Assembly: GCA_947652115.1 (NCBI GenBank)
Contig: OX393561.1
Coordinates: forward strand, 25,103,689-25,167,688
Direction: 5' to 3'
Origin: Blastomussa wellsi
Taxonomy: Eukaryota; Cnidaria; Anthozoa; Scleractinia; Plerogyridae
DNA length: 64,000 nucleotides
The notes under the pieces were generated by a model, which worked only from the letters and a program-made list of their open reading frames with translations, was not told the origin of the DNA and did not search any database. The translations under genes and the position numbers were made by a program. Below are positions 11,501-35,829 of the stretch, piece after piece. Every line of letters starts with the position of its first letter. Position 1 is the stretch's first letter.

Positions 11501-13298
11501 ATTTGGCGATCGGACACTAGACGAAATATCCAACTCCCGCCTGTTCCGCCTAAAGCAGCGGACCCTCCCATGGCGTTTCGACATCGTGCACCGACCAGGA
11601 AAGACCAACCACGCTGCTGATGCTGCCTCGAGATATCCCTCACATTCGCACTCGCTTGACATGCCCGACGCTATGGAATCAGCACTGTTAGCCTGCATCC
11701 GCAACGACGCCCAGGAGCTTGGCACCATTTCATGGTCAATCCTCGCTCGAGAAACAGCAGCAGATGCCTCCCTGGGCCACATCCTCCAGTTGATCGAGAA
11801 AGGGAACACAAGCTTCGACAATAATGACCCCGCACTGGTGCCACTCTGGCCTGCTTGTGAGTCATTCTACGTGCACGATGGTGTGCTGCTGTACCAAGAT
11901 CGGGTAGTGGTCCCTTCCTCCCTCCGCAACCACATACTACAGCACCTTCATGCCGCCCATCAAGGGACATCCACGATGGAACAACGCGCACGAGCTATCG
12001 TCTACTGGCCAGGGATGTCGAAGGACATTCGTGATACGAGAGAGGGATGCACCGACTGCAACAGGAACGCCCCATCACAAGCTGTCACACCTCCACTCCC
12101 ATCCTCACCGCCGTCAACACCGTTTGAAGCAGTCTTCGCAGATTTTTTCGACTACGGTGGACGCCACTATCTCGTAGTAGGAGACCGACTCTCGGGCTGG
12201 GTAGAGATACTAAGCTCGTCAGCTGGCACTAGCCTTGGAGGCTCCACGGGCCTGGTTCGCCACCTGCGCTCCTTCTTTGCCACGTTTGGCGTCCCAGAGG
12301 AGATAGCCAGTGACGGCGGCCCAGAGTTCGTAGCAGGCAACACAGAGAAGTTCTTGCGCCTCTGGGGTGTCCGTCACCGCCTCTCGTCAGTCGGCTTCCC
12401 ACAATCCAACGGCCGGGCAGAAGTTGCAGTTAAAACGGCAAAACGCCTGCTGATGTCCAACACCGGACCCACCGGCAACCTTGATCACGACCGCTTCCTG
12501 CGTGCAATCCTGCAGCTGCGCAACACACCTGACCCGGACTGCAGTCTCTCTCCGGCGCAAATAATCTTTGGCTGCCCACTTCGAGACGGCCTAACGTTTG
12601 TAAACAAACTGGAGAAATTCTCCAACCCCCACGTCCGTCCCCTTTGGCGCCATGCATGGGCAGCTAAGGAGGAGGCCCTTCGAACGCGCATCGCCCGGAC
12701 GACCGAATCTCTCAAGGCCCACTCCAAGCCACTACGCCCCCTATCTATCGGTGAGAGGGTGTTCCTTCAGAACCAACAAGGCAACCACCCAACCAAGTGG
12801 GACAGATCAGGCACAGTAGTGGAGTCCACCGGCCACGATCAGTACAGGGTAAAGGTCAACGGCTCTGGACGCCTGACCCTGCGCAATCGCCGCTTCCTGC
12901 GGGCGTACACGCCAGCCACACCCTCCCTCTCTCAAGAGCCCACGGTCGCACCCCACCTTACCCGCATCGGAGATCACCTTCCGCACCCACACACTCAAGC
13001 ACCAGAACCACAGTCCGATATGCTACCTCAAGCGGCGGTGGAATCCCCCACAGTGGACGCAACTACGACGGAAGACACAACCCCAGCAGATCGTCCGCCA
13101 ACACTAGCAACGACACCCACATTGCACGCACAAGTCCTCACTGACCACTTGTGCCCTGAGACGTCCTCAACCCCTGGTCTTCCCACCCTCGAGGCCCCTC
13201 CACACACACCAGCACCGGACAAGCCATCGCGCCCAAGTCGCAATCGGCAACCACCAAAACATTATGAGCCGGAAACGGGACAGTGGATAGAACGTTGA
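8520..13298 (+). pseudogene. Gypsy gag-pro-pol polyprotein with one TAG
   Basis: One frame runs from ATG 8520 to the stop ending 13298, about 1,592 codons, interrupted only by TAG at 11142-11144 (codon 875). Gag-like N-terminus, then a Cys-rich segment (CQDCKASF...CITCYRARRRN) at about residues 265-300. Protease: IVDTGAQSDLW with Asp about 407. RT: active site CVDD at about 759-762, where most Gypsy RTs have a YxDD tetrad. RNase H: RPDWSQRGIGY, EGEALAVAWG and TDHKPL. Integrase: HHCC finger (HAAHQ...CTDCN), then Asp in FADFFDYGG, Asp in SDGGPEF and Glu in GRAEVAVK. No chromodomain; the C-terminus is Pro/Thr-rich. The stop lies between RT and RNase H. Confidence 0.88.
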
Positions 13299-15716: not shown

Positions 15717-15796
15717 TGCTTTGGGTGGGCCTGGTACCTAGCTAATGACATGCAGTTCTACATCATTGCTCCTGCCATTCTCTTCACAGCATACAG
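15717..15796 (+). CDS. NRF-6-like acyltransferase, exon B
   Basis: 80 nt between TCTCTGCAG and ACAG|GTATGG. Reads CFGWAWYLANDMQFYIIAP, then AILFTAY, the most conserved core of the NRF-6/acyltransferase-3 family, with the WYL.NDMQF box next to a transmembrane helix. Phase joins exon A exactly. The last codon is split with exon C, which lies 16 kb away beyond the viral element. Confidence 0.88.
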
Positions 15797-16485
15797 GTAT
15801 GGTGCCCATTATATCAATTCCTTCCTTGTAAAATTGGAAATGTTTTGACTGGTGAATTAAATTTAATTTGCAGAATTTAATTCAAGTCAAAGCTACAGGA
15901 CAAATACTTAATTATAATTACTTTTTTGTATTGTATTGTAATGTTTTTACATGTATTGAACTTGTAATGCCAGAAGTGACTGGGTCGCTCAAAGCGATTT
16001 ACTTTTTTTTATATTCATTTGCCATCTGCACCTTTACATGAGTTCTTCATTACATGTTACCTAAATTACAATAGCTAGAGATCTGAGCAAGCTCTACTGA
16101 GCTTTTCAAAGAAGATCCCCAGCTTGAAGTTAACAGTTACTAGTGTATAAACATTATGGATGGCTGACTGCAAATCTAAAGAAAGAGACAAAGTTAAACA
16201 AACCTCTACATATGCAGCATAAATATCTAATTATATGCAGCGTGGTTGGTTTTGTACATAACTTTCGATAGACTTTAGAGAACACCGTTTTAACTTTTAT
16301 GGTGGTTATAGTTTTTATTGAAGTTTGCATAAAAAAACATTAGTTTTCCAAAGACAGGTTCTTAAAGGGCTCTATCATCGATGAAACAAGTCATCTTGAA
16401 GTGTGTGGCCTATATTTTTTAAGTTTGGCAATTACAATTCTTTTAAATCTTCATCAGTCGAAGTCCTCATTGTTTCTTCTCAGGT
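15797..16485. other. intron, proximal part
   Basis: First 690 bases of the 16-kb intron. AT-rich, no gene, no clear element boundaries until the repeat that begins near 16486. Confidence 0.6.
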
Positions 16486-16630
16486 TTAACCCATTGACTC
16501 CTACACCAGCCGTAACCGGCCATGACAGACATTGACCTTTGTTCCGCTACTGATGTCATCAGCTTTGACCAAAATAGGAATCCCATTCACCCCAGTTCTG
16601 CAGGAGGGAAAGACCTTTCCAATGATACCG

Positions 16631-17070
16631 ACACACAAAAAAGAGGATGGTTCTGGTGCAGCTGGTGTCAGGAGTGCCAGGGTGCGGCAGGGGGGTGGTG
16701 GCAGGGGTGGCAGGGGTGCCAGGGGGGTGGTGCCAGGGGTTGTGGCTGGGGGTGACAGGAGGGGTGCCAGCGGGTTGGTAGCTTGAGGTGTGCCAAGTGG
16801 CGGACAAACCAACCAAGCGGCGGAAAAGCGTTGAGGTGTGCCAAGCGGTGAACAAACCAGCCAAGCGAGCCAAGCGAAACAACAAACCAACCAATATTCC
16901 CTGTTGAAGAAATGCATGCACTGTGTATTTGCGCCAGAATTAATTTTCCATTTGAAGAAATATCAGCAAAAGTATATTTGCGCCAGAATTAATTTTCCAT
17001 TTGAAGAAATATCCGCACAAGAATATACGAATTTGCGTCAGAATAAAAATCCATTTGAAGAAATATAATC
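16631..17070 (+). repeat. left terminal inverted repeat
   Basis: Outer part is GC-rich with tandem GGCAGGGGTGGCAGGGGTGC-type units; the middle has CCAAGCGG-type units. The inner part has three copies of a roughly 55-bp unit starting TGCGCCAGAATTAATTTTCC (16933, 16980 and, diverged, 17035). It pairs with 30799-31202 and with the internal copy 26345-26711. Confidence 0.85.
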
Positions 17071-17088
17071 ACAAGAATATACGAAAAC

Positions 17089-17263
17089 ATGGATGTGCCA
17101 AACGAATTTCTGGAAGAATTTCTTGAACAAAACCCAGAAAATGAAGACGTATTACAGGGAATGGCTTCGTGTATGGTGGATGCTTCCAACCAGAGGAAAC
17201 CCAAACAACCAAGATATTTTAGCGTTCGCAAGAGAACACAAAGCAAAGTACATAGATTTGGTA
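17089..17263 (+). CDS. 5' fragment of a deleted plus-strand gene
   Basis: Right after the left TIR, ATG 17089 reads MDVPNEFLEEFLEQNPENED; a second frame from about 17150 reads WLRVWWMLPTRGNPNNQDIL and AFAREHKAKYIDLV, so a frameshift is likely. At about 17262 this plus-strand sequence meets the C-terminal end of the minus-strand integrase head-on with no spacer, so the rest of the gene is gone. The position would suit the missing DNA polymerase, but the fragment is not recognisable as one. Confidence 0.35.
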
Positions 17264-17641
17264 AACGTTCAGCAAGTGTGCGGTTGAAACGTTCAACAAT
17301 GGCTTGGTCACGGTGAATGTCAACACGTCCGCGCCGGATAAAAGTTTTGTGTTTTTCCATTTCTTTTGAGACGGCTCCCATGAATTTGTGCCCTGGGTCA
17401 ACCTGCAGCAGTTGTGGCCATTGGAGTGGCCCGCGTTTATAAATTTTCTGAAAAGCCAGCGCGACCTCATCGCGACGGTCAGCGCGTATTTGTAAACTTT
17501 GCGGCCACGGGGCAGTTTGTCGTGATGCAAAAAAAGAAGGTCCGCCTGGTGAACCGCGTTGGGCGTGGGAACATCAAATTTTGGATTTTCAGGCGTTGGT
17601 CGGAAGGATTTTCTGGTCCTCCAGATATTTTTTGAGTGCAA
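17262..17641 (-). pseudogene. retroviral-type (rve) integrase, truncated and frameshifted
   Basis: Reading minus from 17641: VPTPNAVHQADLLFL carries the first catalytic Asp. After an internal loss and frame change near 17480, VDPGHKFMGAVSKEM gives the second Asp and DQAIVERFNRTLAERL the Glu, so the D,D(35)E triad residues are still visible. The N-terminal zinc finger expected in full-length Polinton integrases is absent, and the frame is broken, so it is not functional as read. The 5' end overlaps the small membrane gene 17589-17810. This family inserts the element and makes the short target duplication. Confidence 0.75.
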
Positions 17642-17810
17642 GGCTCCCCACCATCACAGCTGTGAACAATCCATAGTTTTCGAAGGAATTTGAAGGGTCA
17701 GCTGTAAAACTTTTCTTGAACGTTTTTTTGGCCACCCATGCAATGCGCGCAGCGAGGCCGACGAGGGTTGCGGAATCCATGGCGATTTTGACGAGCTTGT
17801 TGTCAGACAT
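17589..17810 (-). CDS. small membrane protein of the element
   Basis: 73 residues, intact. Ala/Val-rich helix near residues 12-26 (ATLVGLAARIAWVAKK) and a second hydrophobic stretch near 48-58 (GLFTAVMVGSLAL) suggest one or two membrane segments. It sits in the minus-strand cluster with the ATPase and overlaps the integrase start. Function unknown. Confidence 0.5.
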   Translation of the reverse strand: MSDNKLVKIAMDSATLVGLAARIAWVAKKTFKKSFTADPSNSFENYGLFTAVMVGSLALKKYLEDQKILPTNA

Positions 17811-17837
17811 GTTGGTTATAGAAAGAGAGAAAATTAT

Positions 17838-18323
17838 TCAATTGGAAATTTTTCTTTCCAAAAAAACTCTGCACACTTTCCAAAGTAACTCTTCAATTTC
17901 TTGATCGCTTAGCTCTTTCACATTTTCCAATTTCCTAATTAACTCTTCCTTTTCTTCTTCACTTTGCACTTCCTTACTTTCCAAAAGAATTTTTAAAGCT
18001 CTCAAAAGCACTTCCATCATATTTTTCATATTTTCCTCATTTTGCTCATATAACAAAAATATTTTTACCCCTTCAAAAACCAATTCATACACATTTTCCA
18101 AATCTTTTGTCAACTTTTTCACCTTTTCCACATTTTCCTCATCTTCCACATTTTCCTCATTTTCCAAATCTTCCTCATTTTCCTCCGCAGACGTGAGATC
18201 AGGATTTTTGACAAGCCAAATGACACTGTTAAAGCAACACTTTGTGAAATACCACCAAAATAGGCCAATGCCTGTTGCTGCTGCGCTGCTTATCACAAAC
18301 GGGGTTAAGCTGATTCTCGGCAT
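17838..18323 (-). CDS. Glu/Lys-rich protein with N-terminal membrane segment
   Basis: 161 residues. The start PRISLTPFVISSAAATGIGL followed by FWWYFTKCCF looks like a signal anchor. The rest is a highly charged helical region with repeated ENEENVEDEENVEK patterns. The long Glu/Lys run is coiled-coil-like. No family recognised. It lies between two small membrane-type genes, same strand, with short gaps. Confidence 0.5.
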   Translation of the reverse strand: MPRISLTPFVISSAAATGIGLFWWYFTKCCFNSVIWLVKNPDLTSAEENEEDLENEENVEDEENVEKVKKLTKDLENVYELVFEGVKIFLLYEQNEENMKNMMEVLLRALKILLESKEVQSEEEKEELIRKLENVKELSDQEIEELLWKVCRVFLERKISN

Positions 18324-18367
18324 TTTATATTCTGCAAAATATATTCAAATGGATTTTTTTTCCCCAC

Positions 18368-18828
18368 TCAGTCCATATAGCGAAGGCCTTTTTTGGGTTG
18401 CGGTGGGGATTCTTGCATCACCTGTGGCGCAGGTGCTGGCGGAGGTGCCGGCACAGTTGGCCAAAAAAAGGTTTGATGTCTTCACGCTTGACATAAGTCG
18501 TTACAATCATTGCGCCAATTCCAATGATAGAGATCCATTAGGTTGTGCTGAACCAATCTCTGCTTTTGGAATCATCTGCAGCGGGCTCTGATGGCGCAGG
18601 CGCAGGAGGATCAGGTGCAGATTGTTTCTCATTTGCGTGAGCGATTTTCTCGAGATAAGCTTTTTTCTGTGCTTCGCGGACCAACCGAGTTCTTTCAGCA
18701 ACCAGTTTACCAGCAGCCACTCGCTTGGGATTTTTTGGGGGCTTTTTCTTGTCCGATGTTTGTGAAGTTGGATGGCTCAGTGCTTCTGTGCTTTCTTGCG
18801 CGGGCGGTTGCTTCTGTTCTTCATCCAT
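18368..18828 (-). pseudogene. Pro-rich single-pass membrane protein, broken
   Basis: From ATG 18828, a Gln/Pro/Ser-rich N-terminus, a basic block (KNPKRVAAGKLVAERTRLV) and a Pro/Ala linker lead to a TAA at 18538-18540. Directly after it the same frame gives a membrane helix (WISIIGIGAMIVTTYVKR). A frameshift in a T-run near 18470 then leads to a Pro-rich tail (PTVPAPPPAPAPQVM) ending GLRYMD at 18368. The three parts look like one gene with one stop and one frameshift. Function unknown; a minor virion membrane protein is possible. Confidence 0.5.
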
Positions 18829-18898
18829 TGTTGTAAACAGATATATATATTCAATAAAAAAATTTTTTGTGAGGAATTGCTGCCCATTTTCTGAGGAA

Positions 18899-19438
18899 TT
18901 ATTCAGCAGTTGGTGAGGAATGCTCAATTTCTTCCGATTTTGTCACATCTTCGGGTTCAAAATCAATGTTTTGAGTATAGATCAGCGCCGCGTTGGCCAC
19001 AGCGAGTAAACGTCCGCACTTGAGTGCAGTGGCGCCCGCAAGGTCGGAGAGCTCATTGTTGATGACGTAGTCGTTTTTGAGTTGTTTTTGGCAAGCTTCG
19101 ATGTCTTTGATTTTGATGACCATTCCGACTGCATTTGTCACAAGGAAAAGGAAGCTGTCGATCAAGCTGTCAGTTGTCTTTGAACCAACAAAGGCCTCCA
19201 AACGTTTGATGTATTTCTCAACATCTTTGTCTGAGAGGCGTTTGACCTGATCGTGCGTCAGTTGCACGCCGAGGGTTTCTTTGGATTTTCCTTTCGAAAC
19301 CAGCACGGCCAACTTCTCGCGAAGAGCGGGAATATCAGGCTGCAATGAGACATTGCCGACGGGCGTGGGCGCGCTGGTTGGCTCAGCTTCAAGCAAGCTC
19401 ATAACATCGGCAATCACTTGGTCGTCGAATTCACACAT
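18899..19438 (-). CDS. conserved-type protein next to the ATPase, unknown
   Basis: 179 residues, intact. Acidic ends and a mostly helical middle (DKDVEKYIKRLEAFV, then SLIDSFLFLVTNAVGMVIKI). Only 21 bases separate it from the downstream end of the ATPase gene, same strand, as in a viral structural-gene cluster. No domain recognised. Confidence 0.55.
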   Translation of the reverse strand: MCEFDDQVIADVMSLLEAEPTSAPTPVGNVSLQPDIPALREKLAVLVSKGKSKETLGVQLTHDQVKRLSDKDVEKYIKRLEAFVGSKTTDSLIDSFLFLVTNAVGMVIKIKDIEACQKQLKNDYVINNELSDLAGATALKCGRLLAVANAALIYTQNIDFEPEDVTKSEEIEHSSPTAE

Positions 19439-19459
19439 TGTTAATATTGGTTTCTTTTT

Positions 19460-20071
19460 TTAATTGCGAACAAATTTTATTTCCGTTGGGCAACGAATTG
19501 CGCACTCAAGGTAGGAAAACTTATTTTTCCCCAACTTAAAAATGTATTCTTGGAACTCCTTTTTTGTAAGGACGCTGCCGGCGATTTCATCATAAAAATA
19601 TTTCAAAGACTTCAGTGAGGGCGTATAGATATAGAAAAGCACAATCGCAAATATGTTTCCGCGGAAAGAAGATGAGATGCTGGTATAATTTTGGGTAAGC
19701 ACCCACAGGCTGAGTCCTGAGTGGCGGGCGCTGAATCCGAGCTCGACCAGCGGGCCTGAGCGCTTTTTCACATCTTTCGAGGCAGCGCAGTCATCGAGGA
19801 TTATGCGCGTGTTGGTTTCATCAAAAGCTATGCCTACAATATTCAACCAGCGTTCCACCTCATTCTGTGCGCAAACGATAAAATAAAAATCCGGGTCCTC
19901 CGAAGCGAGGTCTTGATAAGTCTTGTTATGCAGTAATGTCGGGCAGATGAGCACGATGTAGTCGAACTTGCTGTGAAAAGGTCCGCAGAGCTGATCAACC
20001 ACAAACTGTGATTTCCCTGAATTTGTCGGGCCAACTATCAGAGCGTTGAACGGAATGATGTTTGGATCCAT
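19460..20071 (-). CDS. A32/FtsK-HerA-like DNA packaging ATPase
   Basis: 203 residues, intact. Walker A GPTNSGKSQFV at about residues 14-24, Walker B RIILDDCAAS at about 89-98, and a downstream GFSARHSGLSLWVLTQNYTS sensor-like block. Such ATPases pump genomic DNA into the capsid in Polintons, adintoviruses and nucleocytoplasmic large DNA viruses. Length is normal for the family. It sits 9 bases from the end of the 414-residue capsid candidate, the usual neighbourhood. Confidence 0.88.
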   Translation of the reverse strand: MDPNIIPFNALIVGPTNSGKSQFVVDQLCGPFHSKFDYIVLICPTLLHNKTYQDLASEDPDFYFIVCAQNEVERWLNIVGIAFDETNTRIILDDCAASKDVKKRSGPLVELGFSARHSGLSLWVLTQNYTSISSSFRGNIFAIVLFYIYTPSLKSLKYFYDEIAGSVLTKKEFQEYIFKLGKNKFSYLECAIRCPTEIKFVRN

Positions 20072-20080
20072 TTTTCCATA

Positions 20081-21325
20081 TTAGAATTGCACAGATTCTA
20101 ATTGCTGCTCCAATATATTCATTTGCGAGTCGCTGATCACGAAAACGTGGCAGTTCACATTGCCTGAGCCGATGAGATTTTGCTCGAGCTCCAGCTGAAC
20201 CCCGTCTTTTGTGTTCACAAGCCGTGTGCCGCTGCCGTGCAGTGTCTGATCTTTCATGGAGCGCAAATCAATCAGAAGCCCGAACTTGTCTTCGCTCCAG
20301 AACTTTTTCAGATTCATGTGCTTGTTTTTTGCCTTGCCAAAGAAGTGGTCAACTTCGCTCCAAAAATCTTTTCCTTCGAGACCGTTGTTGAAGAGCATGT
20401 TTGGCGTGCCATTCACCGTAACAGTGACTTTCGTGAGGTCTGGGTTGATGTACTTTTCTGAATCCCTGGTACCGGCTGTGTATGGCTCAATGAAGAGAAG
20501 AAGAATGCCTTTCAGGGATCTTCTCTGAGGGTTCACTCTGAGGTTAATCCTTGAGTCAACGTGTTTTGAAAAGGTGACCACCTCTTCCCGCATCACATGG
20601 TCGTATAAGAACTCCTTTCCCGAGGCGTAAACACTGCTTGCCGCGTCTGCCAAGGTCTTGCTTCTAATCATTTCGTACTCGAGCTGGATGTTTTTTAGCT
20701 TGTATTTTAGTTTATCCGGATCAGAGCCTTTGACAACCTGCGAGGCCGGTGCAAGTTTCAACTCAAAAACGAGATTGTGATAGAGCGCTTGGGGATAAAA
20801 GACTCTGTGGTTTTTCAGGATCTGGTGGTCCAGCCGGATTCGGTATTTCGTTCCGAAAACTTTTGAGAGCGCGTTTTCTGCGTCGACACCCGAGGTTTTC
20901 TTATCCTCAGTATTTGAGCGGATCTTGCAGAGATCTTCGCTTTGAATTCCATCGAGCAGCATGCCGTCACGCTCCTCCTGCGAGAGGAAAAGGTCCTCCC
21001 AGATTTTGAAGATGTCGTACCCCACCGTGTCCTGCACTGGGGTTCCAGCGTACTTCACAACCAGCGTCTCAACCAGAGCCCGTGTGACGTTTTGAACGAG
21101 GAAGTTGTCTGGGTCACCTCCAGAAAGATCGATGTCGAAAAGCAGTCCTAGAGAGCCTGGCACAAGGACCTCGTGCTCATTCAGCTTGGGTACATGAACA
21201 AAAAGGGTCTCGGTGGGGTTGGCTTCGCTACGATCAAAGGTGATGCGCTTGACCGTGCGCTCGGCTTTCATTGCGCCGGGTGTTTTTTCGCTGTGTGTTG
21301 GACGAAGGTTTGCTTGCACCGACAT
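20081..21325 (-). CDS. candidate capsid protein, 414 aa
   Basis: Intact, no membrane segment, mixed beta-rich sequence. Conserved-looking blocks include HEVLVPGSLGLLFDIDLSGG, VNPQRRSLKGILLLF, HMNLKKFWSEDKFGLLIDL and GSGNVNCHVFVISDSQ. Directly upstream of the packaging ATPase. Size and position suit a jelly-roll major capsid protein or another abundant virion protein. I cannot show a double jelly-roll by eye, and the 469-codon gene at 22374-23783 is the rival candidate. Same-family proteins are widespread in cnidarian genomes, by recollection. Confidence 0.55.
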   Translation of the reverse strand: MSVQANLRPTHSEKTPGAMKAERTVKRITFDRSEANPTETLFVHVPKLNEHEVLVPGSLGLLFDIDLSGGDPDNFLVQNVTRALVETLVVKYAGTPVQDTVGYDIFKIWEDLFLSQEERDGMLLDGIQSEDLCKIRSNTEDKKTSGVDAENALSKVFGTKYRIRLDHQILKNHRVFYPQALYHNLVFELKLAPASQVVKGSDPDKLKYKLKNIQLEYEMIRSKTLADAASSVYASGKEFLYDHVMREEVVTFSKHVDSRINLRVNPQRRSLKGILLLFIEPYTAGTRDSEKYINPDLTKVTVTVNGTPNMLFNNGLEGKDFWSEVDHFFGKAKNKHMNLKKFWSEDKFGLLIDLRSMKDQTLHGSGTRLVNTKDGVQLELEQNLIGSGNVNCHVFVISDSQMNILEQQLESVQF

Positions 21326-21365
21326 TTTCTATATTAAACAGAAAATTTTTTTTATTCAGTAGACA

Positions 21366-22480
21366 ATGGCGGAAGGTGGCAGTTTTAAAAATCCTGGTTT
21401 TTTGAACATCCCTTTGGTCACGAAGACCCTGACCTTGACGATGCTATCAACAACGATGGCGATGACAATGAACAAGAGGAAAATCGTCAAAACACAACCA
21501 CTCCTTTTGTGCCTGGCACCGCTTCGACACCCTATCACGGTGGCGAAGAAATTGAAATGGAAACAAGGCTTCACGAACAGAGCGGGCTGCCTGACACTTC
21601 TTACACCGAGGAAACCCCATTGGTGGGCAGCAGTGAACAAGCTTGGCTTGCTGCAAAAGAGATATTTCCGGACATGAGCTCAAGTGAGCTTGACTTTTTT
21701 TACAGCCCAAAAAACAGAAGGCTTCAAGTTAAAATGTTTGGCACTGGAAAAAAAGCATATGACCTGTTTTCCACAAAAAGTGGCAAACTTAATCCATGGC
21801 TTACCAAAGAAATAAAAACTGCCCTTGGAAAGTCCATTTATGAATCACAGGAAAACGTTCAGCAAGAACTGGCTGAAAAACAAAAAGAACTGGAAAAATC
21901 TTTATCTATGGCAAAAGGTCGTGAACAAGTTAAAAATGCCATGGAAGAAGAAAGAAACAGAATGAGAGTAATTGATGAACAGAGAGCTGCCCTTGAAGAT
22001 ACACTGAAACAGGCGAAAAAGGACCTTGAAAAAGAACATCAAGATAAAAGAAAGCAACTGGAACAAAAGAACAAAGCAGCAAAACAGGCGCTAAAATTAC
22101 AAGAAGATATTCAGAAGATCAGAGAAAAAAATGCCGGGCTTCAAGAGAAAATTGACACAGAAGCCTTCAACGAGCTGAAAGTTCAAAAAGCAGAACTGGA
22201 ACGTCAAAATGTAGAAGACAGGGCGGTCATCAACGATGAGAATGCCTCACCCTCTGATAAAGAAGCCACGGAAGCAAGAGTTGCGCAGCGTCTCGAAGAG
22301 ATCAACCAGGTTGACACACAGATTGAGGATATTGAACGGGAGAAGCCTCTTCGTGAAAAGGTCAAAGAGATCTTTAAAAAATACGGCGTGACAGTCGGTT
22401 CAATCCTTCAGCAGCTTTTTTTGTGCTTTTGTTTGCCCCGTCGTTTATCCCCAGCTTCATACCCGGAATCGCTTGTTTGA
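21366..22480 (+). pseudogene. coiled-coil protein, frameshifted and 3'-fused
   Basis: Plus strand, divergent from the capsid candidate (41-bp shared upstream region). From ATG 21366 the frame changes at a T-run near 21407; the acidic part follows (HEDPDLDDAINNDGDDNEQ). A globular block (AAKEIFPDMSSSELDFFYS) leads to about 180 residues of continuous coiled coil (AEKQKELEKSLSMAKGREQV onward) and EKVKEIFKKYGVTVGS. After about 22390 the frame is only the antisense of the 22374-23783 gene, so the natural C-terminus is lost. Structural or scaffold role is an inference. Confidence 0.5.
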
Positions 22481-23783
22481 GCTGGTTGTTGTAACCAACC
22501 GTGCTTTCTGTGTTTATAATCATCCGCGCAGGCATAAGCCAGGCTCCCGGGCAAACGGCAAGGTTCAAATGTACCTTTGCTTCATTGACCGCCAGTTGAT
22601 AACGCTGCACGCTTTTTGCAAGGTCAGGCAGCCTCACTGCGTCTTCCACCAAGACGTTGAACTCGGTCTGGGCCTCCTTTGCTCTGCCTCCAGCACCAAG
22701 AATGCTGCTGCGGACGTTGACTTGCGCACCCAAGATGCAGTACACAAATGCTTCAATAGACTGGTTTATTCTCGAAAGCCCAGCCTGGGTCAAACCTGCT
22801 GTGGTTTTTGGAGCAAACCAATTGAATTGCTCTTCAGCTGCGTCATTTCTGATGAAGCAAATTGAAATTCCTTTTTCAGACGCCCTTGGGTCCTCGTCGT
22901 CGAATTTTGCTTTTGCCGATGGATAGGGAACATTCAGGATGAAAGGATCTTGGCAATAAATATAAACGCTCCCCAACCCGTGATTCGGGCCATTCGTGAA
23001 GCGGAAATCAGTTGACGGGTCAATTCCGAACTCTGCACATAATCTTTTGAAAGAAGCTTCATCGTAACGATTGTTAAACTGACTCTATGTTTGGTCGCCA
23101 GGAAGCGCGCTAAAGCTTTGGATTCCTCCGAGTTGAAATAGGATGTGTCGTACCGTAAAGTAAACGTGAAAGATGTAAAAAGCTCGCACCTGCGGTGGCA
23201 GATTCAGCGTTGTGTTGTCTTTGTCAAATACTTCTCTTGAGATTCCGCAGCCTGTCATCGCACACCACACTGCGAAATTCATCTGCTGTTCCCAAAAAGA
23301 CAGATTTGGTCCCGTCAACCATTTTTTTGCTGGCTTTGACGTTTTGAACTTCAGCTGTTCTTTTTGGAATACCTCTCTGAACTTTGTTGAAAAATACTGA
23401 TCAGGGGTAACATAAATATCCACTTTGTTGTTGAATATTTTTTTCAAACTCGGTGCAGCTTCTTCGAATGGAACTGCTGGAACTGGTAGTGAACTTTTTT
23501 CTGGGCGTGGCGACAGTTGGAAAGGAAAACCGTCAACTTCAACCAAACCCAGAGGTCTTTTCATTTCTGCGCTCCAATATTTTGAATCTGAACCGAATAC
23601 GCTTTGTCGACTGTTGGGTCCCTCTTTGAAAAATATTTCTGCTGTTGCTGTGTTCTCCGGCGCAAAAAACACCTGGGCTTCAAATTTACTTTTGTCTGCC
23701 CTTGGAAACCGTGCATAAAAAGCTTCCCACGCGTTGGTTTTTGCAATGGCGGCCTGCGTTATTTTTCCGAGATATTCCAACAT
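22374..23783 (-). pseudogene. candidate capsid/structural protein, one TAG
   Basis: From ATG 23783 the frame runs 469 codons, with a single TAG at 23085-23087, to 22374. Blocks of note: AFYARFPRADKSKFEAQVFF, WEQQMNFAVWCAMTGCGISR, VRAFYIFHVYFTVRHILFQL, SRINQSIEAFVYCILGAQVN and VHLNLAVCPGAWLMPARMII. No membrane topology or enzyme motif. The size and the pairing with the penton-like gene make it a second capsid candidate. Its 3' end runs convergently into the coiled-coil gene, which suggests a deletion joined them. Identity unproven. Confidence 0.5.
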
Positions 23784-23825
23784 TGCGTTTATATATTTCC
23801 TTTTATTTTTCAATTGAAAATTTAT

Positions 23826-24548
23826 ATGGTACAAAATAAAATGGTTGTGCTTACTATTTCTACGTCGTCTAATCCATGCACCGTCAATTTTTACAACCCG
23901 ATTCCAAAGGCTGATTTTGTTAGACTGTTATCTTGTTCACTTCCAAATTCGTGGAATAATTTGAAAAAAGATGGCGTTGTTGCGATGTCTGATCTTGATG
24001 GAAAACACGCTGTTCCCATAACATTCCCCAAAGGGCATTACACTCTTGAAAGTATGGCACAAAATATAGAGCATGCTTTCGCTAAATTTGATGTGGAACT
24101 TCCCACCCAAATCAATACACCAGCTGGTGCAATGGTTATTGACAACTTTGGGAATAAAAAAATTTCTCTTGACAAAGACTTGGCAAATTTTCTTGGCATT
24201 TCCCGCACATTGTTTTTTAGAACTTTCGTTAAACGGCTTCGAATACCGACAAGCTACTTTGTCCATTGCGACTTGGTTGAGTACAATAAAAATTTGGTTA
24301 ATGGCAAAGCTTCAACCCTTCTTGCGAAGTTTGACATCCGAGGGGAAGCTTTCCAAAAAGTCCACTATCAAACGGGCAAACAGCCGCCCTTTCGTGACGC
24401 TGCTCCGCCTATTTATCCAGAGCTCCCCCACCGGAAAGAACCGATAATTTCCGTCTTGGTGAGATCTCCAAAATTGAAAAAGAAACCTCTGATGAGGTTG
24501 AACACCGAAGAGTTGTATAGAAAAAATACACGAAAGCCTGCAAAGTGA
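23826..24548 (+). CDS. penton/minor-capsid-like protein, 240 aa
   Basis: Divergent from the 469-codon gene (42-bp gap, AT-rich, likely a shared promoter). The core has ITFPKGHYTLESMAQNI, then KKISLDKDLANFLGI and YFVHCDLVEYNKNLVNGKAS, features found in single jelly-roll virion proteins of Polinton-like elements (by recollection, not verified). The C-terminal 50 residues (after QTGKQPPFRDAAPP) look unrelated, because the frame runs into the start region of the next gene. So the C-terminus is probably replaced. Confidence 0.5.
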   Translation: MVQNKMVVLTISTSSNPCTVNFYNPIPKADFVRLLSCSLPNSWNNLKKDGVVAMSDLDGKHAVPITFPKGHYTLESMAQNIEHAFAKFDVELPTQINTPAGAMVIDNFGNKKISLDKDLANFLGISRTLFFRTFVKRLRIPTSYFVHCDLVEYNKNLVNGKASTLLAKFDIRGEAFQKVHYQTGKQPPFRDAAPPIYPELPHRKEPIISVLVRSPKLKKKPLMRLNTEELYRKNTRKPAK

Positions 24549-25009
24549 TTCACTATTCCACGGTTTCTCTTGGAGTTGGAAGTGCATTCCTTTCTTCAGG
24601 TGCCGTCGCAAGTTCTTTAACTGGCGTTGGAATTGTTGTTGGTGCGCCTGTCGCCGGAATAGCTGCCCTCCTTGGATTTGCTTCGACAGGCCTTGCTGCT
24701 GTTAACAGGAAGCTTGAGAGGAAAGTCAAAAAACATTCAAAAATTCAAGCTTTGGCTCAAGCAAAACACGACTCTATCAAAAGTTCCGTTTCCCAAGCTC
24801 TGAATGACGGCAATGTTTCCGACGCTGAATTCAAAATGATCTCTCGTGAAATGGAAAAATATCGTGAATTAAAAGAAAGACTGCGAGAAAATTTCGCGGA
24901 AAAACCTTCCGATTCTCCGAATATGGAAACGATAAAAAAACAGCTTCGCCTCGAGCTTCGGAAAGAGTTTCTGAAAAAAATGTCGGCGTCCAACGCAAAT
25001 TTGAACTAA
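24410..25009 (+). pseudogene. glycine/alanine-rich membrane-active protein, one TAG
   Basis: The frame from about 24410 gives PPPERTDNFRLGEISKIEKE, a TAG at 24518-24520, then a hydrophobic Gly/Ala/Ser-rich region (SLGVGSAFLSSGAVASSLTG, then VGAPVAGIAALLGFASTGLA). A charged helical tail with SDAEFKMISREMEKYRELKE ends at 25009. The hydrophobic hairpin-like segment suggests membrane insertion. The start overlaps the penton-like gene in another frame, consistent with deletion between two neighbours. Function unknown. Confidence 0.45.
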
Positions 25010-25320
25010 ACTTTGAATCGAAAAAAAGAAAAATCTTTCTGAGTGTAATGCGTGATGTTGTCACGCGTGACGTTGTGTGATGTGTCATGCATGATATTGC
25101 GTGACAGGTCACATAAAGGAACAAAACCCTTGTCGGGGGGTGCTCGGTTGCTGTTTTTTGCCTGGCCGCGGCCAGGACTTTCGCTCCGCTGACAAGGCGG
25201 CTGTCAATTCCCATTTTACCTCTGGGAGCGAGGTTTGAAATCCCGCGGGGGGATTTCTGAGCACCCCCCTGTTACCAGTAGGGCCCAGGCGGGCTCACCC
25301 TAGGTAACAGAATTCAGAGA
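25010..25320. other. structured GC-rich non-coding island
   Basis: Contains the perfect 12-bp palindrome GTCACGCGTGAC (25060-25071) amid repeated GTGA(C/T) motifs. It also has the perfect 16-bp palindrome CCTGGCCGCGGCCAGG (25161-25176) and an 11-bp stem GGGGGGTGCTC / GAGCACCCCCC (25135-25145 with 25259-25269). In an AT-rich element this is striking. Possible roles are replication origin, packaging site or structured RNA; none is shown. Confidence 0.6.
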
Positions 25321-25619
25321 GTGGCCAACTCTCACCTCCCAAGGCATCATCAGAATTTGTGAGCTTACTGTTCGATAAGACATCTCGCATATATATTGTC
25401 ATCCGTCTGATTTTTCTTATCCTTTTGGTGCTCTTTCTCTGTCCTTTGCCAAATTTCACATTATTTTGGTGCATACGCATGCGCTTTTAGATTATGTCTG
25501 CATAATTTGAGGTTGACTGAATAACAAGCCAAAATGATCATGCTATTTCACACGATTTTCGTTATTTTTGTGGAATTTTCTTCGCCCGTTTGGCAGAAAG
25601 AGGTCAGACAGATAACTTA

Positions 25620-25865
25620 TCAAGTTGTTGAGGCGATTTGTGAAGCAGAAAGAAAAAAAAAACGGAATAAAATCGCAATCGCAATCGTGCGCTCGATCGA
25701 ATTGATTTTGTTTCTTACCTTCAGGACTTCGCATTGATACACCAGCTTCTGTGTGTCAAAAGATACTTCAAGTCTGCTGAGCTTTTTTGTCGAATTTTGC
25801 TCAAGTTTCATTTTCTTGGCCAAAATGGAATAGAATAACATTGTCCACCATGTTTTCTTCACCAA
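25620..25865 (-). CDS. unrecognised short ORF downstream of F-box-like gene
   Basis: 81 codons with ATG 25865 (VKKTWWTMLFYSILAKKMKL at the start) and a hydrophobic C-terminus. The start overlaps the end of the F-box-like gene. A further short minus-strand frame lies at 25295-25480. No domain; may be non-coding. Confidence 0.2.
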   Translation of the reverse strand: MVKKTWWTMLFYSILAKKMKLEQNSTKKLSRLEVSFDTQKLVYQCEVLKVRNKINSIERTIAIAILFRFFFLSASQIASTT

Positions 25866-26342
25866 ATTCCCGCCCCAGAGCCCAGGGTTTGTACTCGTTG
25901 AGCCTGGTAAAGACTTTCGGTTTTCCGAGAATCACGCTGCTGTTTCAAATGTAATTTTTTTATTTTGTTGTAGACGTATATTGCGTCTTCAAAGTCTTCT
26001 TTTTCTTCAATATCGTACAAAGGATAGCCGAAATAGTGTTTCTTTCCGTTTTTTTAAACACAGGCAACACAAATCATATATCACGCAGGTATTCATATTT
26101 TCCCAAGCCATAATTTTGGTAATCTGCTCATTCTCTTCACAAAATGCTTTCGATTCAATTTCGTGGTGAATTAAGTCAAACCCAAGGTCCAATTTCTGCT
26201 TTATCTTTAAGGTAAGATATTCTTTGTATATTTTCTCACGTAGCTCGGCTGGGAGGTTTTGAATTGCCTCTGTAATCGTGCCGTCAAACGGCTTTCCCTC
26301 ATGTTTTGCTTCGCAGCCGTTTTGCTCAAATTCGTTTGCCAT
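25859..26342 (-). pseudogene. F-box-like accessory protein, frameshifted
   Basis: ATG 26342 lies next to the internal TIR. The N-terminal part has an F-box-like helix pair (AIQNLPAELREKIYKEYLTL) followed by KIKQKLDLGFDLIHHEI and a Cys-containing stretch (VIYDLCCLCLK). A shift in the A-run near 26052 leads to KHYFGYPLYDIEEKEDFEDA and a basic tail ending at 25859. F-box-type proteins recruit ubiquitin ligases; an anti-host role is inference. The gene is broken in both copies of the duplication. Confidence 0.45.
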
Positions 26343-26344
26343 GT

Positions 26345-26711
26345 GTTCGTATATTCTTGTGCGGATATTTCTTCAACTGGAAAATTAATTCTGGCGCAAA
26401 TATACTTGTGCTGATATTTCTTCAAATGGAAAATTAATTCTGGCGCAAATACACAGTGCATGCATTTCTTCAACAGGGAATATTGGTTGGTTTGTTGTTT
26501 CGCTTGGCTCGCTTGGCTGGTTTGTTCACCGCTTGGCACACCTCAATGCTTTTCCGCCGCTAGTCCGCCGCTTGGTTGGTTTGTCCGCCGCTTGGCACAC
26601 CTCAAGCTACCAACCCGCTGGCACCCCTCCTGTCACCCCCTGCCACAACCCCTGGCACCACCCCCCTGCCACCCCTGCCACCACCCCCCTGCCGCACCCT
26701 GGCACTCCTGA
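26345..26711 (-). repeat. internal (third) copy of the TIR
   Basis: Same sequence and orientation as the right terminal repeat, with two TGCGCCAGAATTAATTTTCC-type units (read on the minus strand) and the C-rich CCACCCCCCTGCC end. It lacks the outermost about 37 bp, being cut at the duplication junction. Confidence 0.88.
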
Positions 26712-26832
26712 TAAAGAAGCCACGGAAGCAAGAGTTGCGCAGCGTCTCGAAGAGATCAACCAGGTTGACACACAGATTGAGGATATTGAACGGGAGAAGC
26801 CTCTTCGTGAAAAGGTCAAAGAGATCTTTAAA
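26712..26832 (+). pseudogene. coiled-coil gene tail, duplicated 3' fragment
   Basis: Only the C-terminal about 40 codons (ARVAQRLEEINQVDTQIEDI) are present, joined in frame to TIR-derived Pro/His-rich codons upstream. It is a by-product of the duplication breakpoint and has no start of its own. Confidence 0.75.
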
Positions 26833-28236
26833 AAATATGGCGTGACAGTCGGTTCAATCCTTCAGCAGCTTTTTTTGTGCTTTTGTTTGCCCCGTCGTTT
26901 ATCCCCAGCTTCATACCCGGAATCGCTTGTTTGAGCTGGTTGTTGTAACCAACCGTGCTTTCTGTGTTTATAATCATCCGCGCAGGCATAAGCCAGGCTC
27001 CCGGGCAAACGGCAAGGTTCAAATGTACCTTTGCTTCATTGACCGCCAGTTGATAACGCTGCACGCTTTTTGCAAGGTCAGGCAGCCTCACTGCGTCTTC
27101 CACCAAGACGTTGAACTCGGTCTGGGCCTCCTTTGCTCTGCCTCCAGCACCAAGAATGCTGCTGCGGACGTTGACTTGCGCACCCAAGATGCAGTACACA
27201 AATGCTTCAATAGACTGGTTTATTCTCGAAAGCCCAGCCTGGGTCAAACCTGCTGTGGTTTTTGGAGCAAACCAATTGAATTGCTCTTCAGCTGCGTCAT
27301 TTCTGATGAAGCAAATTGAAATTCCTTTTTCAGACGCCCTTGGGTCCTCGTCGTCGAATTTTGCTTTTGCCGATGGATAGGGAACATTCAGGATGAAAGG
27401 ATCTTGGCAATAAATATAAACGCTCCCCAACCCATGATTCGGGCCATTCGTGAAGCGGAAATCAGTTGACGGGTCAATTCCGAACTCTGCACATAATCTT
27501 TTGAAAGAAGCTTCATCGTAACGATTGTTAAACTGACTCTATGTTTGGTCGCCAGGAAGCGCGCTAAAGCTTTGGATTCCTCCGAGTTGAAATAGGATGT
27601 GTCGTACCGTAAAGTAAACGTGAAAGATGTAAAAAGCTCGCACCTGCGGTGGCAGATTCAGCGTTGTGTTGTCTTTGTCAAATACTTCTCTTGAGATTCC
27701 GCAGCCTGTCATCGCACACCACACTGCGAAATTCATCTGCTGTTCCAAAAAAGACAGATTTGGTCCCGTCAACCATTTTTTTGCTGGCTTTGACGTTTTG
27801 AACTTCAGCTGTTCTTTTTGGAATACCTCTCTGAACTTTGTTGAAAAATACTGATCAGGGGTAACATAAATATCCACTTTGTTGTTGAATATTTTTTTCA
27901 AACTCGGTGCAGCTTCTTCGAATGGAACTGCTGGAACTGGTAGTGAACTTTTTTCTGGGCGTGGCGACAGTTGGAAAGGAAAACCGTCAACTTCAACCAA
28001 ACCCAGAGGTCTTTTCATTTCTGCGCTCCAATATTTTGAATCTGAACCGAATACGCTTTGTCGACTGTTGGGTCCCTCTTGAAAAATATTTCTGCTGTTG
28101 CTGTGTTCTCCGGCGCAAAAAACACCTGGGCTTCAAATTTACTTTTGTCTGCCCTTGGAAACCGTGCATAAAAAGCTTCCCACGCGTTGGTTTTTGCAAT
28201 GGCGGCCTGCGTTATTTTTCCGAGATATTCCAACAT
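26828..28236 (-). pseudogene. second copy of the 469-codon structural gene
   Basis: Carries the shared TAG at 27539-27541 and an extra private lesion: one T lost in CTCTTTG near 28079, which shifts the frame after about residue 52. Also one missense change (Trp to Leu near 27747). So this copy is more damaged than 22374-23783. Confidence 0.8.
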
Positions 28237-28278
28237 TGCGTTTATATATTTCCTTTTATTTTTCAATTGAAAATTTAT

Positions 28279-29001
28279 ATGGTACAAAATAAAATGGTTG
28301 TGCTTACTATTTCTACGTCGTCTAATCCATGCACCGTCAATTTTTACAACCCGATTCCAAAGGCTGATTTTGTTAGACTGTTATCTTGTTCACTTCCAAA
28401 TTCGTGGAATAATTTGAAAAAAGATGGCGTTGTTGCGATGTCTGATCTTGATGGAAAACACGCTGTTCCCATAACATTCCCCAAAGGGCATTACACTCTT
28501 GAAAGTATGGCACAAAATATAGAGCATGCTTTCGCTAAATTTGATGTGGAACTTCCCACCCAAATCAATACACCAGCTGGTGCAATGGTTATTGACAACT
28601 TTGGGAATAAAAAAATTTCTCTTGACAAAGACTTGGCAAATTTTCTTGGCATTTCCCGCACATTGTTTTTTAGAACTTTCGTTAAACGGCTTCGAATACC
28701 GACAAGCTACTTTGTCCATTGCGACTTGGTTGAGTACAATAAAAATTTGGTTAATGGCAAAGCTTCAACCCTTCTTGCGAAGTTTGACATCCGAGGGGAA
28801 GCTTTCCAAAAAGTCCACTATCAAACGGGCAAACAGCCGCCCTTTCGTGACGCTGCTCCGCCTATTTATCCAGAGCTCCCCCACCGGAAAGAACCGATAA
28901 TTTCCGTCTTGGTGAGATCTCCAAAATTGAAAAAGAAACCTCTGATGAGGTTGAACACCGAAGAGTTGTATAGAAAAAATACACGAAAGCCTGCAAAGTG
29001 A
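28279..29001 (+). CDS. second copy of the penton-like gene
   Basis: Identical by eye to 23826-24548 over the whole frame, with the same replaced C-terminus and the same 42-bp spacing from the divergent gene. Confidence 0.5.
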   Translation: MVQNKMVVLTISTSSNPCTVNFYNPIPKADFVRLLSCSLPNSWNNLKKDGVVAMSDLDGKHAVPITFPKGHYTLESMAQNIEHAFAKFDVELPTQINTPAGAMVIDNFGNKKISLDKDLANFLGISRTLFFRTFVKRLRIPTSYFVHCDLVEYNKNLVNGKASTLLAKFDIRGEAFQKVHYQTGKQPPFRDAAPPIYPELPHRKEPIISVLVRSPKLKKKPLMRLNTEELYRKNTRKPAK

Positions 29002-29462
29002 TTCACTATTCCACGGTTTCTCTTGGAGTTGGAAGTGCATTCCTTTCTTCAGGTGCCGTCGCAAGTTCTTTAACTGGCGTTGGAATTGTTGTTGGTGCGC
29101 CTGTCGCCGGAATAGCTGCCCTCCTTGGATTTGCTTCGACAGGCCTTGCTGCTGTTAACAGGAAGCTTGAGAGGAAAGTCAAAAAACATTCAAAAATTCA
29201 AGCTTTGGCTCAAGCAAAACACGACTCTATCAAAAGTTCCGTTTCCCAAGCTCTGAATGACGGCAATGTTTCCGACGCTGAATTCAAAATGATCTCTCGT
29301 GAAATGGAAAAATATCGTGAATTAAAAGAAAGACTGCGAGAAAATTTCGCGGAAAAACCTTCCGATTCTCCGAATATGGAAACGATAAAAAAACAGCTTC
29401 GCCTCGAGCTTCGGAAAGAGTTTCTGAAAAAAATGTCGGCGTCCAACGCAAATTTGAACTAA
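28863..29462 (+). pseudogene. second copy of the Gly/Ala-rich protein gene
   Basis: Same sequence as 24410-25009, including the TAG (28971-28973). The lesion is therefore older than the duplication. Confidence 0.45.
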
Positions 29463-29773
29463 ACTTTGAATCGAAAAAAAGAAAAATCTTTCTGAGTGTA
29501 ATGCGTGATGTTGTCACGCGTGACGTTGTGTGATGTGTCATGCATGATATTGCGTGACAGGTCACATAAAGGAACAAAACCCTTGTCGGGGGGTGCTCGG
29601 TTGCTGTTTTTTGCCTGGCCGCGGCCAGGACTTTCGCTCCGCTGACAAGGCGGCTGTCAATTCCCATTTTACCTCTGGGAGCGAGGTTTGAAATCCCGCG
29701 GGGGGATTTCTGAGCACCCCCCTGTTACCAGTAGGGCCCAGGCGGGCTCACCCTAGGTAACAGAATTCAGAGA
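29463..29773. other. second copy of the GC-rich structured island
   Basis: Repeats 25010-25320, with GTCACGCGTGAC at 29513-29524 and the CCTGGCCGCGGCCAGG palindrome. All palindromes are conserved between copies. Confidence 0.6.
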
Positions 29774-30312
29774 GTGGCCAACTCTCACCTCCCAAGGCAT
29801 CATCAGAATTTGTGAGCTTACTGTTCGATAAGACATCTCGCATATATATTGTCATCCGTCTGATTTTTCTTATCCTTTTGGTGCTCTTTCTCTGTCCTTT
29901 GCCAAATTTCACATTATTTTGGTGCATACGCATGCGCTTTTAGATTATGTCTGCATAATTTGAGGTTGACTGAATAACAAGCCAAAATGATCATGCTATT
30001 TCACACGATTTTCGTTATTTTTGTGGAATTTTCTTCGCCCGTTTGGCAGAAAGAGGTCAGACAGATAACTTATCAAGTTGTTGAGGCGATTTGTGAAGCA
30101 GAAAGAAAAAAAAAAACGGAATAAAATCGCAATCGCAATCGTGCGCTCGATCGAATTGATTTTGTTTCTTACCTTCAGGACTTCGCATTGATACACCAGC
30201 TTCTGTGTGTCAAAAGATACTTCAAGTCTGCTGAGCTTTTTTGTCGAATTTTGCTCAAGTTTCATTTTCTTGGCCAAAATGGAATAGAATAACATTGTCC
30301 ACCATGTTTTCT

Positions 30313-30796
30313 TCACCAAATTCCCGCCCCAGAGCCCAGGGTTTGTACTCGTTGAGCCTGGTAAAGACTTTCGGTTTTCCGAGAATCACGCTGCTGTTTC
30401 AAATGTAATTTTTTTATTTTGTTGTAGACGTATATTGCGTCTTCAAAGTCTTCTTTTTCTTCAATATCGTACAAAGGATAGCCGAAATAGTGTTTCTTTC
30501 CGTTTTTTTAAACACAGGCAACACAAATCATATATCACGCAGGTATTCATATTTTCCCAAGCCATAATTTTGGTAATCTGCTCATTCTCTTCACAAAATG
30601 CTTTCGATTCAATTTCGTGGTGAATTAAGTCAAACCCAAGGTCCAATTTCTGCTTTATCTTTAAGGTAAGATATTCTTTGTATATTTTCTCACGTAGCTC
30701 GGCTGGGAGGTTTTGAATTGCCTCTGTAATCGTGCCGTCAAACGGCTTTCCCTCATGTTTTGCTTCGCAGCCGTTTTGCTCAAATTCGTTTGCCAT
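30313..30796 (-). pseudogene. second copy of the F-box-like gene
   Basis: Same sequence and frameshift as 25859-26342. Located next to the terminal TIR. Confidence 0.45.
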
Positions 30797-30798
30797 GT

Positions 30799-31202
30799 GT
30801 TCGTATATTCTTGTGCGGATATTTCTTCAACTGGAAAATTAATTCTGGCGCAAATATACTTGTGCTGATATTTCTTCAAATGGAAAATTAATTCTGGCGC
30901 AAATACACAGTGCATGCATTTCTTCAACAGGGAATATTGGTTGGTTTGTTGTTTCGCTTGGCTCGCTTGGCTGGTTTGTTCACCGCTTGGCACACCTCAA
31001 TGCTTTTCCGCCGCTAGTCCGCCGCTTGGTTGGTTTGTCCGCCGCTTGGCACACCTCAAGCTACCAACCCGCTGGCACCCCTCCTGTCACCCCCTGCCAC
31101 AACCCCTGGCACCACCCCCCTGCCACCCCTGCCACCACCCCCCTGCCGCACCCTGGCACTCCTGACACCAGCTGCGCCAGAACCATCCTCTTTTTTGTGT
31201 GT
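30799..31202 (-). repeat. right terminal inverted repeat
   Basis: Reverse complement of 16631-17070, ending CCATCCTCTTTTTTGTGTGT, followed by TACCG at 31203-31207, which matches the left flank (16626-16630). Confidence 0.87.
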
Positions 31203-31207
31203 TACCG

Positions 31208-31863: not shown

Positions 31864-31989
31864 GTTTCACTTGCGAGGACTGCTTATAATTGTCAGTGTG
31901 TTGGCAGGTATCAGTTTTATCACCACAGCTGTCATCTTTGCTCATTATGACCTGGCTGTTACGGTTGGTGCTAAATTTCGAGCTCAACA
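31864..31989 (+). CDS. NRF-6-like acyltransferase, exon C
   Basis: 126 nt between GTTTCCAG and CAACA|GTAAGT. Reads FHLRGLLIIVSVLAGISFIT, then TAVIFAHYDLAVT: one transmembrane helix followed by a loop, as in this family. The phase fits exon B exactly across the 16-kb intron, so the viral element has not disrupted the coding join. Confidence 0.85.
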
Positions 31990-34949: not shown

Positions 34950-35328
34950 GTAACTTTGTTAGATTTCAGCCAATCAAATCATGTGTCCCCAGAGCCACTT
35001 GTTCCTTGTGCACTGGCCCAACCGACAAAGAGGGACAAGCGGCTCTAGGGACGAGTACAAAATGTGTAAATAAAATTCTAGTGAAGAGAAATCTGCAATG
35101 GGCATACTTTTTGTGATTTTGTCCATGTTTGTGTGGCCATGTTACAGACATGATGTAATTGAGTGGTTAGTCAGTCCCTCAATCAATCTTCGGTTTGTTT
35201 ATTTGTTTTTATCTACACATTTTTAAAGTTACAATAGCCATGAAACTCTGCTGTTCACATGAAAACAAGAAGGGGATAGTACTCATTTTGTAATCAAACT
35301 GATTTTTGGGTGTTTTTCTCTTGGTAAG

Positions 35329-35536: not shown

Positions 35537-35751
35537 GTTAGTGGAACAGTTTGTTGTTGTGTTGATCAATTGTTAGTATTACTTTTACCCCACTCACACA
35601 AATGTTAGAACACGTTTAAAGCTGTATGAACCATGATTCCTCACATTCATCTGCATTTGCAATTCAAATATGAATTATTTGATATACTTCACATCATTTC
35701 ACTCCTCACAAGAAACATGAGCTTAATAAATTGACCTCCCTCCCAATGTGT

Positions 35752-35824: not shown

Positions 35825-35829
35825 TTGTA

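What the first reader, a model, noticed from the sequence alone, without database searches (positions are those of the whole stretch)
16631..31202. Complete-ended virus-like element inside a host gene intron
Both TIR ends and a TACCG duplication are visible, and the packaging ATPase, integrase and several capsid-type genes are present, while polymerase and protease are not. The gene set suggests a Polinton/adintovirus-like lineage; the three large unidentified proteins may represent capsid families not yet described. It sits between two exons whose reading phase still matches.
Basis: partly seen in the sequence, partly recalled or inferred. Interest (0 to 1): 0.9.

Follow-up and report, generated by a model that had tools for sequence, protein, structure and literature searches.

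The report
Polymerase-deleted provirus with giant-virus-type capsid
An intron of what is likely an acyltransferase gene, in a likely stony coral, holds a virus-like DNA element with matching inverted ends; its main capsid protein is predicted to fold like those of giant viruses, and it keeps only the first stretch of a likely DNA polymerase gene that runs on in four of five related copies read from the same genome, so it would have needed such relatives to multiply.

Summary
The element (16631-31202) has 400-bp inverted ends (93.7% identical columns), a TACCG target duplication, and lies in an intron of an acyltransferase-type gene whose flanking exons keep phase.

Three corrections. (1) 4,454 bp of it is a tandem duplication (22254-26707 = 26708-31161; 3 substitutions, 2 one-base indels) with a CTGA microhomology junction; the unduplicated extent is 10.1 kb. 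(2) The missing polymerase looks like a deletion: 17059-17263 encodes about the first 80 residues of a frame that runs on for 463 residues in four of five related copies with the same end. Relatives of that frame carry type-B polymerase exonuclease motifs and weak DNA_pol_B_2 hits. At 17263-17265 an integrase-like remnant takes over. (3) The 22374-23783 frame is broken by an in-frame TAG.

The parts
16626..16630 (.). target-site duplication TACCG, left
   Evidence: sequence
16631..17031 (+). left terminal inverted repeat, starts ACACACAAAAAAGAGGATGG
   Evidence: first 12 bases identical in 4 of 5 related loci, one base different in the fifth
17059..17265 (+). 5' remnant of a likely type-B DNA polymerase gene (about 80 codons, in two frames), cut at 17263-17265
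   Evidence: tblastn 90% over residues 41-80 and 69% over 1-46 of L006:1668-3056; blastn 97-99% over 17151-17265 in 5 of 5 related loci
17253..17653 (-). integrase-like remnant in two frames (by motif only: D-x34-E and IVERFNRTLAERL; recalled, not found by any profile)
   Evidence: negative: 5, 73, 112, 113, 118; 14 of the 66 genome matches cover 17263-17472 or most of it at 88-92%
17589..17810 (-). small ORF, 73 aa
   Evidence: no Pfam family
17838..18323 (-). 161-aa Glu-rich ORF with hydrophobic N-terminus
   Evidence: no Pfam family above cut-off; a PHROG ssDNA-annealing match at 2e-4 over the Glu-rich part is likely compositional
18538..18840 (-). about 100-aa Pro/Lys-rich ORF
18899..19438 (-). 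179-aa ORF, unknown
19460..20071 (-). packaging ATPase, Pox_A32 type, 203 aa
   Evidence: Pfam PF04665 E 3.8e-9; PHROG terminase 4.7e-5; weak STIV B204, E 0.067
20081..21325 (-). major capsid protein, 414 aa, predicted double jelly roll
21509..22480 (+). 323-aa frame, Glu/Lys-rich, coiled-coil-like by eye
22374..23783 (-). 470-aa orphan gene, broken by TAG at 23085-23087; conserved family
   Evidence: no fold match
23826..24548 (+). 240-aa protein, unassigned (minor capsid candidate by position only)
24545..25009 (+). 154-aa protein with hydrophobic N-terminal part (Gly/Ala/Leu/Val-rich)
22254..26707 (.). first copy of the tandem duplication, 4,454 bp
26708..31161 (.). second copy; 3 substitutions and 2 one-base indels apart; junction 26707/26708 shares CTGA
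26346..26711 (-). inner right inverted repeat without its last about 41 bp
30800..31202 (-). right terminal inverted repeat
31203..31207 (.). target-site duplication TACCG, right
15717..15796 (+). host exon (acyltransferase type) before the intron
31864..31989 (+). host exon after the intron

Best explanation
This is a 14,572-bp virus-like DNA element with 400-bp inverted ends and a 5-bp target duplication inside an intron of a likely acyltransferase gene, and it is likely a defective, non-autonomous member of a Polinton/adintovirus-like family whose capsid is predicted to be of the giant-virus type. Likely history: (a) a linear DNA with terminal repeats was inserted by an integrase (inferred from the ends, the TSD and an integrase-like remnant); (b) an internal deletion removed everything between codon ~80 of a left-end polymerase gene and the 3' part of the integrase gene (shown: DNA homology to five related loci stops at 17265, and four of the five go on with the same frame to residue 463; inferred: that this frame is a whole protein-primed type-B polymerase and that the gap arose by deletion). 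The sequence does not show whether (b) came before or after (a); if before, the copy would have been replicated and integrated in trans by full-length relatives. (c) Likely much later, a microhomology-mediated event duplicated the right 4,454 bp in tandem (shown: two copies with 5 differences, CTGA at the junction). The ATPase and capsid frames are open; the 470-aa frame and the integrase-like stretch are not, so particle formation from this copy alone is not expected.
Against: No relative with polymerase, integrase and capsid together was seen: the genome tools answered 1 of 36 requests. The polymerase assignment rests on 2 of 10 sub-threshold Pfam hits and recalled motifs; L006's own frame gives no polymerase hit. 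The integrase remnant was recognised by no profile. One of five related copies (L005) does not continue the frame. The capsid model is of moderate confidence (pLDDT 64.2; one of five models 34.2), Pfam's Capsid_N match is only 0.14, and solved Polinton or adintovirus capsids are, to my knowledge, not in the PDB, so their absence there says nothing; in BFVD an adintovirus protein named penton is at rank 24. The TSD is 5 bp, while 6 bp is usual for Polintons (recalled).
Confidence: 0.7

Rival explanations
1. A naturally polymerase-less, Polinton-like virus lineage that replicates with host or helper polymerase, complete as it stands at about 10 kb.
For: Capsid, ATPase and integrase-like remnant without a polymerase between complete ends. 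A second related copy (L005) also loses the frame early, at residue 96.
Against: The left end keeps the first 80 codons of a frame that continues in four of five related loci, with a sharp stop at 17263-17265; that looks like a deletion scar.
Confidence: 0.12
2. The 4,454-bp tandem duplication is an assembly error (two haplotypes or reads joined), so the true element is about 10.1 kb.
For: Near identity of the copies (5 differences in 4,454); another array of three hits spaced 3,847 and 3,848 bp elsewhere in the assembly (C16) could mean a habit of the assembler.
Against: The junction has a 4-base microhomology and drops 41 bp of the repeat, as a real rejoining would; the copies differ at 5 sites.
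Confidence: 0.3
3. A fragment of a giant virus (Nucleocytoviricota) captured in the host genome, not an element of the Polinton type.
For: Capsid fold and A32-type ATPase nearest to Nucleocytoviricota.
Against: Inverted ends, TSD, integrase-like remnant, small size, related copies with the same end in the same genome.
Confidence: 0.05
4. The capsid and ATPase genes are kept by the host for a function of its own (for example defence), as proposed for endogenous virophages in protists.
For: ATPase and capsid frames are open while neighbours are broken.
Against: No expression or selection data; intronic position and young duplication fit a neutral insertion.
Confidence: 0.05

Closest known systems
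Adintoviruses / animal Polintons (Mavericks)
   Same: Inverted ends, target duplication, packaging ATPase, predicted double-jelly-roll capsid, integrase-like remnant, relatives with a left-end frame that reads like the N-terminal part of an OTU-bearing protein-primed PolB (NRDNECLKWA in L006; meaning recalled)
   Different: Polymerase lost in this copy; no protease seen; capsid fold scores nearer to Nucleocytoviricota than to adenovirus hexon; ~10 kb; 5-bp TSD
Meldvirus Meld23486 (PMC11071296; section 16, passages and figure legend read)
Cnidarian Polinton MCPs noted by Bellas et al. 2023 (PMC10120064; section 9 and passages read)
   Same: They are reported as the only metazoan MCPs that fall outside the main Maverick-Polinton cluster
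   Different: The parts read give no structure or gene map for them; identity with the present family is not tested
Nucleocytoviricota capsids (PBCV-1, iridovirus, faustovirus, ASFV p72, poxvirus D13)
   Different: 7-12% sequence identity in the VIA rows of these families; small integrating element without other giant-virus hallmark genes among the 10 ORFs scanned
Virophages (mavirus, Sputnik)
   Same: Small integrating element, DJR capsid, ATPase

Membership tests
Polinton / adintovirus | terminal inverted repeats and target-site duplication | tested here: met
   400-bp TIRs, 5-bp TSD; usual 6 bp is recalled
Polinton / adintovirus | protein-primed PolB with N-terminal OTU domain | tested here: not met
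   only about 80 codons remain in this copy; the frame continues in 4 of 5 related loci, polymerase by weak hits and motifs
Polinton / adintovirus | retrovirus-like (rve) integrase | tested here: inconclusive
   motif-level remnant in two frames; no profile hit
Polinton / adintovirus | packaging ATPase | tested here: met
   Pox_A32 3.8e-9
Polinton / adintovirus | double-jelly-roll major capsid | tested here: met
   fold met by prediction
Polinton / adintovirus | hexon recognisable by BLASTP to adintovirus hexons | not tested
   no adintovirus hexon sequence was at hand; no hit in viral contigs or phage records, which may not hold them
Polinton / adintovirus | adenain/Ulp1-type protease | tested here: not met
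   no peptidase family at E <= 1 in the 10 ORFs, nor in 24521-25006 and 17592-17810 at E <= 10; a broken gene could be missed
Nucleocytoviricota | DJR capsid of the Nucleocytoviricota type | tested here: inconclusive
   best structural matches are of this phylum, but at 7-12% identity and with no Polinton capsid among the solved structures listed
Nucleocytoviricota | other hallmark genes (D5 helicase, VLTF3, own PolB) | tested here: not met
   no such Pfam family in the 10 ORFs
Meldvirus with PolB, integrase and poxvirus-like capsid | adintovirus-like PolB/integrase joined to a capsid resembling large DNA viruses | tested here: inconclusive
   capsid side met by prediction; polymerase only as remnant plus relatives' frame

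The most novel reading that the evidence does not exclude
Corals carry a large, so far uncharacterised family of integrating, Polinton-style viruses (protein-primed polymerase and integrase) that build their shell from a Nucleocytoviricota-type capsid protein: a living or recent intermediate between Polintons and giant viruses, together with non-autonomous deletion derivatives that keep the capsid module and would spread by borrowing polymerase in trans, as satellites.
Probability: 0.35. Interest if true: 0.82.

Novelty: new variant of a known kind. Interest (0 to 1): 0.6.

Why it matters
Where giant viruses came from is open, and one proposal (abstract of PMC10328495, seen in a listing) derives them from Maverick-like ancestors. 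A family that joins the Polinton way of life to a giant-virus-type capsid in an animal would be direct material for that question, and its capsid family (1845 relatives at E <= 0.001) is large enough for a real phylogeny. The deletion copy and the tandem duplication also show how such elements decay.

Tried and rejected
Viral-contig scans for MCP (two), ATPase, 470-aa family, polymerase N-terminal frame and integrase remnant confirmed no relatives, nor did the phage records for MCP and ATPase; for the integrase remnant there was one hit at E 3, taken as chance. PDB sequence searches for MCP, its alignment and the 470-aa alignment: none; for L006's frame one hit at E 0.18 to a zinc finger. The model of the 470-aa homologue P0127 is poor (pLDDT 53.6, pTM 0.34) and its best BFVD match has E 0.41, so no fold is claimed. 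Comparing the integrase remnant with a retrotransposon of the window gave nothing. NCBIfam gave nothing usable. Families absent from the VIA list are not excluded by that.

Considered and rejected: chance ends (412 aligned columns plus a TSD plus the same terminus in other loci); contamination (host exons on both sides in one contig); the three unknown proteins being three new capsid families (one is a predicted known fold, one is broken and unassigned, one untested).

Literature: nine searches (one search showed 15 of 104 papers and one search showed 20 of 21). Among the titles and abstract starts listed I saw none describing this family in corals; that is not proof that none exists. Starrett et al. 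2021 is not held. PMC10328495 has no mention of corals or cnidarians in its main text; of PMC11244446 passages were seen.
Full report
Setting. The window is a stretch (C1:25103689-25167688) of a 368-Mb, 124-contig genome. The relatives that bear organism names come from stony corals (Oculina patagonica; Orbicella faveolata), so the host is likely a stony coral; its name is not given.

The observation. Inverted repeats of 400 bp close the element at 16631 and 31202 (412 columns, 93.7% identical; 20 of 26 differences are gap columns), flanked by TACCG. The element lies between exon 15717-15796 and exon 31864-31989, which carry GT/AG borders, share codon AG|G and together match Acyl_transf_3 at 3.2e-5, positions 121-182, under Pfam's cut-off (the first exon region alone 0.00035; the second alone none). 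By recalled resemblance the gene is of the nrf-6 kind.

A tandem duplication. 22254-26707 and 26708-31161 are the same 4,454 bp, apart from three substitutions and two single-base indels. The junction joins the right inverted repeat, 41 bp short of its end, to the middle of the 21509-22480 frame, with CTGA common to both sides. Three substitutions in 4,454 bp are far fewer per base than six in the 392 ungapped TIR columns (derived), so the duplication is likely much younger than the insertion, if the repeats were alike at first. An assembly error is not excluded. The unduplicated extent is 10,118 bp.

The polymerase scar. The DNA search with 16500-17500 gave 66 matches in the genome (40 of 2087 candidates scored). 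Of eight loci returned, three are the window itself; the other five (L002, L005, L006, L007, L008) align, in pieces, from the terminus to 17265 and not beyond, within the 16401-17900 compared. Four of the five start with ACACACAAAAAA; L002 differs there in one base. Inside this end L006 has an open frame of 463 codons. The window keeps residues 1-46 (69%) and 41-80 (90%) of it, in two frames, up to 17263. The frame is matched to residue 463 in four of five loci: unbroken in L006, in pieces in L002, L007 and L008; in L005 the match ends at residue 96, although 1,501 bases past the junction are held, so L005 may be a second, differently cut copy. The frame has 1076 relatives. L006's own frame gives no polymerase family. 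Ten of the longer relatives among the 120 listed were scanned: DNA_pol_B_2 in 2 of 10 (0.0042, 0.0091; sub-threshold), Endonuclease_7 in 8 of 10 at E <= 1 and 7 above cut-off, those seven being already so labelled when I chose them. Three printed relatives show motifs that I recall as those of protein-primed type-B polymerases. From 17263 on the window runs into an integrase-like stretch on the other strand, which recurs in 14 of the 66 matches at 88-92%. A deletion from codon 80 of the polymerase to the 3' part of the integrase is the simplest account. PMC11071308 (passages read) describes Polintons as having protein-primed polymerase, integrase, protease, ATPase and two capsid proteins, and names a coral member from Stylophora.

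The integrase. The remnant reads in two frames and shows D, 34 residues, E and IVERFNRTLAERL, as expected of a retrovirus-type integrase (recalled). No profile or structure search recognised it, so this is a motif-level claim.

Other genes. ATPase, Pox_A32 3.8e-9, the only one of 10 ORFs above a Pfam cut-off. The 470-aa gene is broken by TAG at 23085-23087, and in the second copy also by a one-base loss near 28078; 428 proteins match its first part, some with a hydrophobic C-terminus. The 240-aa and 154-aa products on the plus strand have no family. Contig lengths shared between the listed 120 rows each: capsid and polymerase 4 (control mean 0.11, max 1), capsid and 470-aa 3 (mean 0.21, max 3, so weaker), 470-aa and polymerase 2 (mean 0.19, max 2); most of these contigs are far longer than the element, so this shows company in a genome rather than one element.

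Limits. The genome tools answered 1 of 36 requests; no full-length relative was read.

Noticed in passing
G000 C16:12622324, 12626171, 12630019: Three equal hits of the integrase-like stretch spaced 3,847 and 3,848 bp: another tandem array of element DNA, so internal tandem duplication may recur in this family or in this assembly.
   Followed up: no
L005 around 1455-1501 (its - strand): This related copy leaves the likely polymerase frame at residue 96, 16 residues after the window's breakpoint: perhaps an independent deletion or rearrangement.
   Followed up: partly
L002 near 2284 (its - strand): This copy also has TACCG directly before its end, the same five bases as the window's target duplication; chance, target preference or part of the end is open.
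   Followed up: no
window 8517-13295: Retrotransposon frames: reverse transcriptase, RNase H and integrase.
   Followed up: partly
window 50516-53515: Open 1000-aa retrotransposon polyprotein frame with RT, RNase H and integrase.
   Followed up: partly
window 38670-39383: Reverse transcriptase fragment.
   Followed up: no
window 35263-36791: Further exon-like pieces of the host acyltransferase-type gene downstream of the element, by recalled resemblance; Pfam did not confirm them.
   Followed up: partly
P0254, P0275, P0347 and others: An Endonuclease_7 domain sits between the exonuclease-like motifs of the likely polymerase in relatives; one paper search listed nothing on it by title.
   Followed up: partly
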